A stretch of 41,497 nt of DNA from Deltaproteobacteria bacterium. GTDB taxonomy: Bacteria > Desulfobacterota > Syntrophia > Syntrophales > UBA2210. Within the stretch, counting starts at the first letter, position 1. Each line of letters starts with the position of its first letter. The stretch spans positions 1 to 41,497 of the forward strand of contig JAFDAS010000028.1 of NCBI GenBank assembly GCA_019313695.1. The letters run 5' to 3'. The notes under the pieces are model-generated. The model was not told the DNA's origin and did no database searches. It was given only the letters and a program-made list of their open reading frames with translations. The translations under genes were made by a program, and so were the position numbers. Below, one piece after another: positions 32,167-34,299 of this stretch.

Positions 32167-32275
32167 GAGGGTCACATCTTAATTATTAACTATTGACTTC
32201 TCAATTCGTCTCTCCTATAACAGAACGACACAAACCATGCAAGAGCAGAGGGTCACATCTTAATTATTAACTATT
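32167..32275 (+). repeat. two tandem forward 28-bp repeat copies with related flanks
   Basis: 32167-32194 and 32248-32275, each followed by GAC... and a related ATGCAA-containing stretch. Confidence 0.85.
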
Positions 32276-32350
32276 GACTATTCGGCCAGTCTTCACTACA
32301 GAAGGATAACGCAGATCATGCAATAAACTTAAACGGACTGGCGGTACAGA

Positions 32351-32507
32351 TGATGGACTCGTAAAAAGTCCCAAAAACGTCATGCCGGATCCCGTATCCG
32401 GTACGGGCAGGCCCAATCCGGCATCCAGAACATATTGAAATTACTGGATTCTGGTTTCCGCCGGAATGACAAAAAATGGTGTTTTCTGACTTTTTACGAC
32501 TTTGTCA
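32351..32507. repeat. MITE-like repeat, family 2, nested inside a RAYT-linked element
   Basis: TGATGGACTCGTAAAAAGTCCC...GACTTTTTACGACTTTGTCA between 28-bp repeat copies at 32248 and 32561. Confidence 0.8.
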
Positions 32508-32526
32508 CAGATGACAGGAGATAAAA

Positions 32527-32588
32527 GCCTGAAAAGGAAAATGGACAAGATCAGGGGGCGAATAGTTAATAATTAAGATGTGACCCTC
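32527..32588 (+). repeat. duplicate of the RAYT 3' end plus 28-bp repeat
   Basis: GCCTGAAAAGGAAAATGGACAAGATCAGGGGGCGAATAGTTAATAATTAAGATGTGACCCTC matches the RAYT 3' end at ~33536-33597 with only a few mismatches. Confidence 0.88.
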
Positions 32589-32610
32589 CAACCCTCCAAC
32601 GGTGATATCG

Positions 32611-33585
32611 ATGACAAGACCATTGCGTGTTGAATATCCAGGTGCGTATTATCATGTAATCAACCGTGGAAATGCCGGCGAGAACATATTCAACAGTGAC
32701 AGAGATCGGGAAAAGTTCCTCGAATACCTTGAAAAAGCGGTGGAACGATTCTCGATAGTCATCCATACCTACTGCCTCATGTCCAACCATTACCACTTAT
32801 TAATAGAAACACCTCAACCAAATCTAAGCGCCGCGATACAATGGCTCAACGTCAGCTATGCCGCGTACTACAACAAAAAACGACAGAGATCCGGCCATCT
32901 TTTTCAGGGAAGGTTCAAATCCATACTGGTAAATGCCGATGAATATCTGACGCACCTTTCCCGCTATATACACCTCAACCCTGTCCGGGCAAACATTGTG
33001 ACGGGTCCGGCCGAATTTTCCTGGAGCAGCTACCCCGCGTTTATCGGTAGAATAAAGGCGCCGGATTGGTTAGAGACCGGATGGCTGCTGGCGATTTTCG
33101 GGAAAGATAAAAAAGAAGCGGTCAACAACTATAGAGACTTTGTAGAAGAAATTGAGATTAAAACGCTCGAAAACCCGGAAGAAGACATCATCGGCGGTTT
33201 TATCCTGGGAGATATCGATTTTGTAAACTGGGTGAAAAACACCTGTCTTTCGACCAGACATGACGAAAAGGAGATTCCACAGCTCAGGAAACTCAAGCCA
33301 AAGGTATCGCTTGAAACGATCCTTCAGGCTGTTAGCGATGAATTTGGATACAGTGAAAAAGAGATACGTGAAAAAGGACGCAAGGGCAATAGGCCACGGG
33401 ATATTGCAATCTATCTTGCAAGAGACATCAGTGGCGTAGCATGCGGCGGACTGGGAGATTATTTTGGTGGTGTATCAGGCGCGGCCATTACCGTGAGATA
33501 CAATAAGATTGCCGGGAAAATGGCGGAAGATGAAAGCCTGAAAAGGAAAATAGCCAGGATCAGAGGACGAATAGTTAATAATTAA
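32611..33585 (+). CDS. REP-associated tyrosine transposase (RAYT; Y1/IS200-like TnpA) with a DnaA domain IV-like C-terminus
   Basis: MTRPLRVEYPGAYYHVINRGNAGENIF, HTYCLMSNHYHLLIETP (HUH-type), RSGHLFQGRFKSILV, YIHLNPVRANIV; C-terminal RPRDIAIYLAR..LGDYFGGVSGAAITVRYNKI. Confidence 0.93.
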   Translation: MTRPLRVEYPGAYYHVINRGNAGENIFNSDRDREKFLEYLEKAVERFSIVIHTYCLMSNHYHLLIETPQPNLSAAIQWLNVSYAAYYNKKRQRSGHLFQGRFKSILVNADEYLTHLSRYIHLNPVRANIVTGPAEFSWSSYPAFIGRIKAPDWLETGWLLAIFGKDKKEAVNNYRDFVEEIEIKTLENPEEDIIGGFILGDIDFVNWVKNTCLSTRHDEKEIPQLRKLKPKVSLETILQAVSDEFGYSEKEIREKGRKGNRPRDIAIYLARDISGVACGGLGDYFGGVSGAAITVRYNKIAGKMAEDESLKRKIARIRGRIVNN

Positions 33586-33597
33586 GATGTGACCCTC
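33570..33597 (-). repeat. 28-bp repeat at the RAYT 3' end; encodes the RAYT stop codon
   Basis: AATAGTTAATAATTAAGATGTGACCCTC; RAYT ends ...R G R I V N N * inside it. Confidence 0.92.
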
Positions 33598-33733
33598 TTT
33601 ATTTATCTTGACTTCCGAATCATTTTTCATTAGTAATATCAAATGTTCATCAGTTGAACAAGCCAGGTCATGGAAAATTTTAAATCCGGAATGATACTGG
33701 GCGGTCTTTTTACGAGACCACCTCTACTTCAGA

Positions 33734-34090
33734 ATGGAAATAAACATGCCTGATCCCCAGATATCCGATCTTAAAGACGGAGAAGTCATCAAGGTACTCC
33801 GGGAAATACAGGAGTCCCCCGAAATGACCCAGCGAGAGTTGTCTTCCCGGACAGGTGTCAGTCTGGGCAAGGCGAACTTCCTGATTAATGCCCTGGTCAA
33901 AAAGGGCCTCGTCAAGGTAAGAAATTTCAAAAAAACCGATAATAAATACGCTTATATATATCTCCTCACGCCCCACGGGCTTGAGGAAAAAACCAGAATC
34001 ACCTATCGATTTCTGAAAAGGAAGATAATAGAATACGAACAACTGGAAGAAGAGATTGACCGGCTGAAAAAAGAAATTAAAAGTGTTTAG
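33734..34090 (+). CDS. MarR-family EPS-associated transcriptional regulator
   Basis: DGEVIKVLREIQESPEMTQRELSSRTGVSLGKANFLINALVKKGLVKVRNFKKTDNKYAYIYLLTPHGLEEKTRITYRFLKRK. Confidence 0.85.
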   Translation: MEINMPDPQISDLKDGEVIKVLREIQESPEMTQRELSSRTGVSLGKANFLINALVKKGLVKVRNFKKTDNKYAYIYLLTPHGLEEKTRITYRFLKRKIIEYEQLEEEIDRLKKEIKSV

Positions 34091-34299
34091 AGGGTCACAT
34101 CTTAATTATTAACTATTGACTCGAAACCTCAGCGGCACAACGCGCAGAGGCTTTCCTGTGGAGTTGTAAATAGTGTGACTATTGCCGTAAGATACAATAA
34201 AATTGCCGGAAGACGGAAAAGGTAGCAGGAAGTAGAATTCGGAAAAGAGAAGAGGACAGGATCAGGAATCGAATAGTTAATAATTAAGATGTGACCCTC
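34090..34299. repeat. non-autonomous RAYT-linked element carrying a decayed RAYT 3' fragment
   Basis: 28-bp arms at 34090-34117 and 34272-34299; interior ATTGCCGTAAGATACAATAAAATTGCCGG vs RAYT ATTACCGTGAGATACAATAAGATTGCCGG. Confidence 0.88.

What the first reader, a model, noticed from the sequence alone, without database searches (positions are those of the whole stretch)
32167..34299. Repeat copies carry decayed pieces of the transposase 3' end, pointing to internally deleted derivatives of a mobile RAYT
The last ~62 bp of the RAYT element (~33536-33597) are duplicated just upstream of the RAYT (32527-32588: GCCTGAAAAGGAAAATGGACAAGATCAGGGGGCGAATAG... vs GCCTGAAAAGGAAAATAGCCAGGATCAGAGGACGAATAG...). 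The element at 34090-34299 has a forward 28-bp end, then an interior with ATTGCCGTAAGATACAATAAAATTGCCGG (RAYT: ATTACCGTGAGATACAATAAGATTGCCGG) and GGACAGGATCAGG before the reverse 28-bp end. Two tandem left-end copies with related flanks sit at 32167 and 32248. RAYTs are generally described as single-copy, domesticated genes that mobilise REPs in trans. Here the coding 3' end itself seems to have travelled with the repeat, as expected of an autonomous element and its MITE-like derivatives.
Basis: partly seen in the sequence, partly recalled or inferred. Interest (0 to 1): 0.82.

Follow-up and report, generated by a model that had tools for sequence, protein, structure and literature searches.

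The report
Transposase element with internally deleted offspring
A small bacterial jumping-gene unit, a transposase gene between two matching inverted ends, sits beside shortened copies of its own kind, one of them inserted in the stretch just ahead of the transposase gene, which suggests that these usually "tamed" transposases can still move and shed miniature elements.

Summary
The "RAYT" is a Y1 transposase with a DnaA-type C-terminal domain, of the TIRYT/TIRtron type. Relatives in other bacteria define the complete unit: left end, promoter-like leader, 324-aa transposase, and a right end that encodes the last codons and the stop. In the window that unit runs 32167-33597. It is split in its leader by a 341-bp element (32248-32588) carrying its own left end, leader, start codon, the transposase 3' end and right end, with a foreign repeat replacing the middle. 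That is an internally deleted derivative, not a duplication of the 3' end. A second derivative lies at 34090-34299. The 28-bp end occurs 33 times in the genome. Most copies are right-end/right-end dimers, and two dimers on another contig keep transposase 3'-end sequence. Dispersed dimers, and two whole sister TIRtrons, are missing from contiguous homologous sites in congeneric genomes, so such units insert or are lost. The derivatives probably descend from sibling lineages rather than the resident gene. Mobility of this particular unit was not shown directly. TIRtrons and Y1-linked miniature repeats are known; the value is a co-existing series from autonomous unit to deleted derivative to REPIN-like dimer.

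The parts
32167..33597 (+). Complete TIRtron unit (left end to right end), 1431 bp as found, about 1090 bp without the nested insert
   Evidence: Leader halves 32167-32247 and 32589-32613 align end to end with intact leaders of relatives L094, L096, L097, G063; LE-to-ATG length 106 nt joined vs 105 nt in the derivative's own leader
32167..32194 (+). Left end (LE), 28-bp terminal inverted repeat of the full unit
   Evidence: Exact match to the end consensus; followed by GACT as in relatives' left ends
32193..32221 (+). Promoter-like site in the leader: TTGACT, 17-nt spacer, TATAAC
   Evidence: Same spacing with TATAAG in relatives L093, L094, L096; the consensus scan, which requires T at position 6 of the -10, did not list it
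32248..32588 (+). Internally deleted derivative inserted in the leader of the full unit: LE, leader to start codon, foreign repeat, transposase 3' end, RE
   Evidence: Leader homologous to intact leaders; 3' end 39/48 + 30/30 identical; above all shuffles for both transposase and leader
32355..32499 (.). Foreign repeat (CTCGTAAAAAGTC ... GACTTTTTACGA) in the middle of the derivative; boundaries approximate
   Evidence: Same end motif at 8 places in the window, 0.06 expected
32511..32573 (+). Transposase C-terminal coding remnant, in frame with the end (MTGDKSLKRKMDKIRGRIVNN)
32611..33585 (+). TIRYT-type Y1 transposase, 324 aa, Y1_Tnp + Bac_DnaA_C; HYH at 32788-32796, candidate tyrosine at 32965-32967
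   Evidence: Pfam PF01797 2e-15, PF08299 2.8e-8; thousands of homologues, most listed ones 324 aa; motifs located
33570..33597 (-). Right end (RE); also encodes the last residues (IVNN) and the stop of the transposase
   Evidence: C-terminal I-x-N-[NI]-stop conserved in most homologues
34090..34299 (+). Second internally deleted derivative: LE, unknown stretch, last ~135 bp of a transposase gene, RE
34316..34343 (-). Extra right end next to the second derivative
27663..27757 (.). RE-RE dimer (REPIN-like), interior unrelated to the transposase
   Evidence: absent in 4 congeners, flanks locally diverged
28371..28465 (.). RE-RE dimer, replaces the 3' end of a gene
30698..30836 (.). RE-RE dimer, supplies the hemA stop codon
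   Evidence: absent at the colinear site in G002
31313..31445 (.). Dimer of inverted ends
   Evidence: absent at the colinear site in G002
35782..35809 (-). Solo right end with shared adjacent hairpin block
37153..37180 (-). Solo right end with the same block
37898..37925 (-). Solo right end with the same block
39333..39360 (-). Solo right end

Best explanation
32167-33597 is a TIRtron: a Y1/HuH transposase gene of the TIRYT type bounded by 28-bp inverted ends, the right one doubling as the end of the reading frame. It belongs to a lineage of units that insert as wholes. The sibling copies at 32248-32588 and 34090-34299 are non-autonomous derivatives that lost the middle of the gene but kept both ends; the first inserted into the leader of the resident unit. 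The right-end/right-end dimers are further reduced, REPIN-like miniature elements. The resident transposase most likely acts on all of them in trans through the shared ends. Shown: the anatomy, the shared ends, homology of both halves of the split leader, transposase-derived interiors in four elements, and absence of dimers and of two sister TIRtrons from homologous sites in congeners. Inferred: that this transposase cuts and joins these ends, that the nested derivative arrived by transposition, and that the unit can still move.
For: Complete units with the same layout in other species: LE about 100 bp before the ATG and RE overlapping the stop in L094, L095, L097; C-terminal I-x-N-[NI]-stop conserved in most homologues. 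Split leader restores to normal length and aligns across the junction. Derivative has leader, start codon and 3' end. Ends are identical (33/33, 30/30, 30/30) while adjacent sequence is 25/44, 39/48 and 27/48. Two C40 dimers carry GCCA(G)GATCAGAGGACG of the transposase 3' end, 0 of 300 shuffles as good. Dimers absent at contiguous sites in congeners: C181 in G002 and G001, C192 in G002, C40:7279 in G001. Whole sister TIRtrons C123 (1037 bp) and C200 (818 bp) absent at contiguous sites in one and six congeners. Other intact Y1 genes in the genome have private TIRs close to or over the stop codon. Related 3'-end or 5'-end fragments with ends in other genomes: G005:C155, G155:C31, L095:673-915.
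Against: Only one full-length copy of this type in the genome. No clean empty site for the window unit itself: the left flank is shared with G002 but the right side is not colinear. Both LE-RE derivatives with transposase sequence lie within 2.2 kb of the gene. Empty-site junctions show small base losses or gains and no target-site duplication, so exact insertion points are uncertain. Some 28 of 33 ends are right-type, which a simple LE-RE transposition model does not explain. The genome is a fragmented assembly with 4% estimated contamination.
Confidence: 0.76

Rival explanations
1. Local rearrangement only: unequal exchange and deletion between nearby copies of the 28-bp ends made tandem partial copies of one element; no transposition of derivatives.
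For: Both LE-RE derivatives lie beside the gene and ends are clustered within 12 kb; 28-bp identical repeats are good recombination substrates; tandem ends at 34299/34316.
Against: The split leader restores to normal length within about 1 nt of the derivative's own leader, which independent truncations would not do; the derivative's leader and 3' end differ from the resident's (25/44; 39/48) and its C-terminal peptide is as close to other family members; transposase-bearing dimers lie on another contig and one is absent from the homologous site in G001.
Confidence: 0.14
2. Domesticated transposase: the gene is fixed in place, acts only on short ends in trans as described for RAYT/REPIN systems, and coding sequence is swept up because the right end overlaps the gene.
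For: One full-length copy only; right-end dimers dominate; RAYTs were described as unable to self-mobilise (PMC3116915).
Against: Derivatives also carry the left end, one with leader and start codon, which one-ended capture does not give; two sister TIRtrons are absent as whole units in congeners; the gene neighbourhood differs in G002.
Confidence: 0.2
3. The ends are moved by one of the other Y1 transposases of the genome, and the resident gene is a passenger.
For: Ten other Y1 genes or fragments matched in the genome.
Against: Those intact enough to test have different TIRs; only the resident gene is bounded by, and encodes part of, this end.
Confidence: 0.07

Closest known systems
TIRtron / TIRYT (Di Nocera et al. 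2013, PMC3733652)
   Same: RAYT-like Y1 transposase flanked by TIRs with GGGGWSAS-type core (relatives here GGGGTCAC); ends overlapping the gene; TIR repeats as singles, dimers and clusters elsewhere in the genome
   Different: In the passages I read that paper does not describe internally deleted LE-RE derivatives with leader and coding ends, insertion of one into another, or absence of whole units from homologous sites
TnpA_Y1 subclass 2.1.2 with Bac_DnaA_C (Quentin et al. 2018, PMC6006769)
   Same: Y1 core plus Bac_DnaA_C C-terminal domain
   Different: [quoted passage not shown] here a left end, right end, derivatives and absent sites are seen
REPINs and RAYTs (Bertels and Rainey 2011, PMC3116915)
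   Same: Short inverted doublets that depend on a Y1 transposase; suggested to derive from the ends of an ancestral IS200-like element
   Different: Ends here are not GTAG-tagged hairpins; the presumed ancestral autonomous unit and intermediates are still present
MITEs derived from insertion sequences (general knowledge)
   Same: Both ends kept, middle deleted, mobilised in trans
   Different: Parent is a Y1/HuH element with long TIRs rather than a DDE transposase; no target duplication seen

Membership tests
TIRYT / TIRtron | RAYT-like Y1 transposase with HuH and tyrosine | tested here: met
   PF01797 2e-15; HYH and YIHLNPVRA located; REP_Tyr_transpos model 67.9 bits, below its cut-off of 80
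TIRYT / TIRtron | Flanked by long terminal inverted repeats instead of REPs | tested here: met
   28-bp LE and RE identical; same layout in relatives
TIRYT / TIRtron | C-terminal HTH / Bac_DnaA_C domain (subclass 2.1) | tested here: met
   PF08299 34.1 bits, cut-off 31.5; DnaA chain 8btg 3.5e-6
TIRYT / TIRtron | Related TIR repeats elsewhere as dimers or clusters | tested here: met
   33 copies, mostly in dimers or clusters
REPtron (RAYT with REPs) | REP: GT[AG]G tag plus hairpin | tested here: not met
   No GTAG tag in the end; single ends fold at -0.9 and -1.9 kcal/mol, little different from shuffles (z 0.03 and -0.90)
REPIN | Two inverted ends forming one long hairpin, dispersed | tested here: met
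   Dimers fold at -29 to -35 kcal/mol, z -8.7 to -14; dispersed and absent in congeners. REP-type ends are not met, so 'works like', not 'is'
IS200/IS605 | Subterminal hairpins at LE and RE, non-TIR ends | tested here: not met
   Ends are inverted repeats without a stable hairpin of their own
MITE derivative of a transposon | Same ends as an autonomous parent, internal deletion | tested here: met
   32248-32588 and 34090-34299
MITE derivative of a transposon | Mobilised by the parent's transposase | not testable with these tools
   Needs a transposition or cleavage assay

The most novel reading that the evidence does not exclude
The genome preserves, with one shared end sequence, the whole route proposed for the origin of REPINs: an autonomous Y1 element that moves as a unit, internally deleted LE-RE derivatives, and right-end dimers that spread in trans, so that TIRtrons are the still-mobile counterparts of domesticated RAYT/REPIN systems.
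Probability: 0.4. Interest if true: 0.7.

Novelty: new member of a known kind. Interest (0 to 1): 0.5.

Why it matters
How REPINs and their single-copy RAYT genes arose is an open question; the suggestion that they came from the ends of a once mobile IS200-like element was put forward without intermediates (PMC3116915). A TIRtron lineage with whole-unit insertions, internally deleted copies and end dimers under one shared end sequence makes that route testable, and suggests that at least this branch of 'domesticated' Y1 transposases behaves like an ordinary insertion sequence.

Tried and rejected
Transposase origin for all dimers: rejected, seven dimer interiors (27663, 28371, 30698, 31313, C181, C192, C30) score no better than shuffles. 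Decay of the resident gene: rejected as sole source, because the nested copy's C-terminal peptide (first 16 residues) matches the resident at 10 and P0004/P0012 at 11. Synonymous-bias test on the remnants: differences looked at by eye, too few to judge. Target-site duplication: none seen. Class-wide pattern search: ends are concentrated in the window's genus with a few outside. Plasmid search: only partial matches below 60% identity. Promoter scan did not list the leader promoter.

Full report
WHAT IS THERE. The 28-bp end GAGGGTCACATCTTAATTATTAACTATT occurs 33 times (up to 3 mismatches) in the genome that holds the window, and never in the reversed control. Copies cluster at window 27.6-39.4 kb and at C40:2.5-9 kb, with a few on four other contigs. 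Two kinds of end can be told apart by what follows the repeat on the inside: GA(CT) in three copies (32167, 32248, 34090) and CG in 28 copies.

THE TRANSPOSASE. The gene at 32611-33585 encodes 324 aa with a Y1_Tnp domain and a C-terminal Bac_DnaA_C domain. The HYH motif (32788-32796) and a candidate catalytic tyrosine (32965-32967) are intact. Most homologues end in I-x-N-[NI]-stop. Those last codons are the right inverted end itself, so the overlap of gene and end is a family trait.

THE CANONICAL UNIT. Relatives with 68-79% protein identity in other bacteria show the intact layout in L094, L095 and L097: left end, a TTGAC possible -35 box at the inner edge of the end, about 100 bp to the ATG, the gene, and a right end over the stop codon. 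In L093, L094 and L096 a TATAAG follows TTGACT at 17 nt; the window's left end has TATAAC at the same distance. The promoter is inferred from sequence; the consensus scan did not list it because of its rule for the last -10 base.

THE WINDOW UNIT IS SPLIT. If 32248-32588 is set aside, the leader pieces 32167-32247 and 32589-32613 align end to end with intact leaders. They give 106 nt from the first base of the left end to the end of the ATG, against 105 nt in the derivative's own leader (the printed 109 includes three bases beyond the ATG). The simplest reading is that a complete unit runs from 32167 to 33597 and that 32248-32588 inserted in its leader between GAGCA and CAACC, without an obvious target duplication.

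THE INSERTED PIECE. 32248-32588 has a left end, a leader homologous to intact leaders up to the start codon, a foreign repeat (about 32355-32499, of a family with 8 end motifs in the window), then 48 nt of in-frame transposase 3' end and the right end. This is what an internally deleted derivative should look like. 34090-34299 is a second one, with less of the leader and more of the 3' end.

NOT THE RESIDENT'S OWN DECAY. Ends are identical between copies (33/33, 30/30, 30/30), while the sequence next to them has diverged to 25/44, 39/48 and 27/48. The nested copy's C-terminal peptide MTGDKSLKRKMDKIRG matches the resident at 10 of 16 positions and other family members (P0004, P0012) at 11. The derivatives therefore probably come from sibling units; the ends are kept alike by function, recent movement or conversion (inference).

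ELSEWHERE IN THE GENOME. Two dimers of one type on contig C40 (4379-4493, 7279-7393) carry GCCA(G)GATCAGAGGACG of the transposase 3' end directly beside the right end, better than any of 300 shuffles. Seven other dimers have unrelated interiors. Homologous sites in congeners are contiguous without the dimer for C181, C192 and C40:7279, and G002, colinear with window 27.9-32.2 kb, lacks the dimers at 28371, 30698 and 31313 and the transposase unit, although the flank to the right of the unit is not comparable there.

WHOLE UNITS MOVE. Other intact Y1 genes in this genome have their own private TIRs close to or over the stop codon: C123 (27 bp, perfect), C116 (25 bp), C112, C200 (23 bp), C202, C54. 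The whole C123 unit (1037 bp) is missing at the contiguous site in G002, and the whole C200 unit (818 bp) in all six congeners. Junctions are not base-perfect because intergenic sequence has diverged. These are sister TIRtrons, not the window's own unit.

ENDS ARE NOT REPS. Single ends have no stable hairpin in single-stranded DNA, while dimers fold on themselves strongly. There is no GTAG tag. The system is therefore not a REPtron, but its dimers work like REPINs.

RELATION TO KNOWN WORK. Di Nocera et al. (PMC3733652) named TIRYTs and TIRtrons and reported TIR dimers and clusters. Quentin et al. (PMC6006769) placed DnaA-domain proteins in subclass 2.1.2 and found no REP-like repeats near them. 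Bertels and Rainey (PMC3116915) proposed that REPINs derive from the ends of an ancestral IS200-like element and noted that RAYTs seem unable to move themselves. The present locus is a member of the TIRtron kind that retains the steps between.

LIMITS. No experiment shows cleavage or movement. One full-length copy of this type exists in the genome. The assembly is fragmented (282 contigs), with 95% completeness and 4% contamination.

Noticed in passing
30698, 28371 and 34090; contig C192:54099: Ends of the element supply stop codons of neighbouring genes: hemA ends in T+GA of the repeat, the ORF 27787-28386 ends MRVTS* inside the dimer, the MarR-type EPS regulator's TAG uses the first G, and the gene before C192:54099 would end inside the dimer (read by eye).
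   Followed up: partly
35782, 37153, 37898: Three solo right ends share a ~40-nt block with a GTGGGGC...GCCCCAC hairpin and a common outer flank ACAAT(A/G); 39333 shares the flank only. Looks like a separate composite repeat family.
   Followed up: partly
L093:2715-2975 (Candidatus Desulfaltia): A different element (CCCTAATGTTGCA...TGCAACGTTAGGG ends, about 260 bp) is inserted in the leader of the homologous unit, in the same zone as the window's nested derivative; the leader may be an insertion hot spot.
   Followed up: no
Own genome contigs C123, C116, C112, C200, C202, C54: Six further Y1 transposase genes each with different private TIRs close to or over the stop codon: a genome with many TIRtron families.
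   Followed up: partly
16460-16580, 23337-23460, 28492, 32358-32500, 33704: Another repeat family with CTCGTAAAAAGTC ends, 8 end motifs in the window against 0.06 expected.
   Followed up: no
G002:C136 near 72.2 kb (L213): At the site where the C200 TIRtron is absent, G002 keeps a short AAATGGGGTCAGAC...GCCATTT relic of the same end, possibly a footprint or a mini-element.
   Followed up: no
L137:1358-1521 (G005:C155): A relative 55% identical to the transposase is followed by a second right end with its own 43-residue 3'-end fragment, the same tandem arrangement as in the window.
   Followed up: partly
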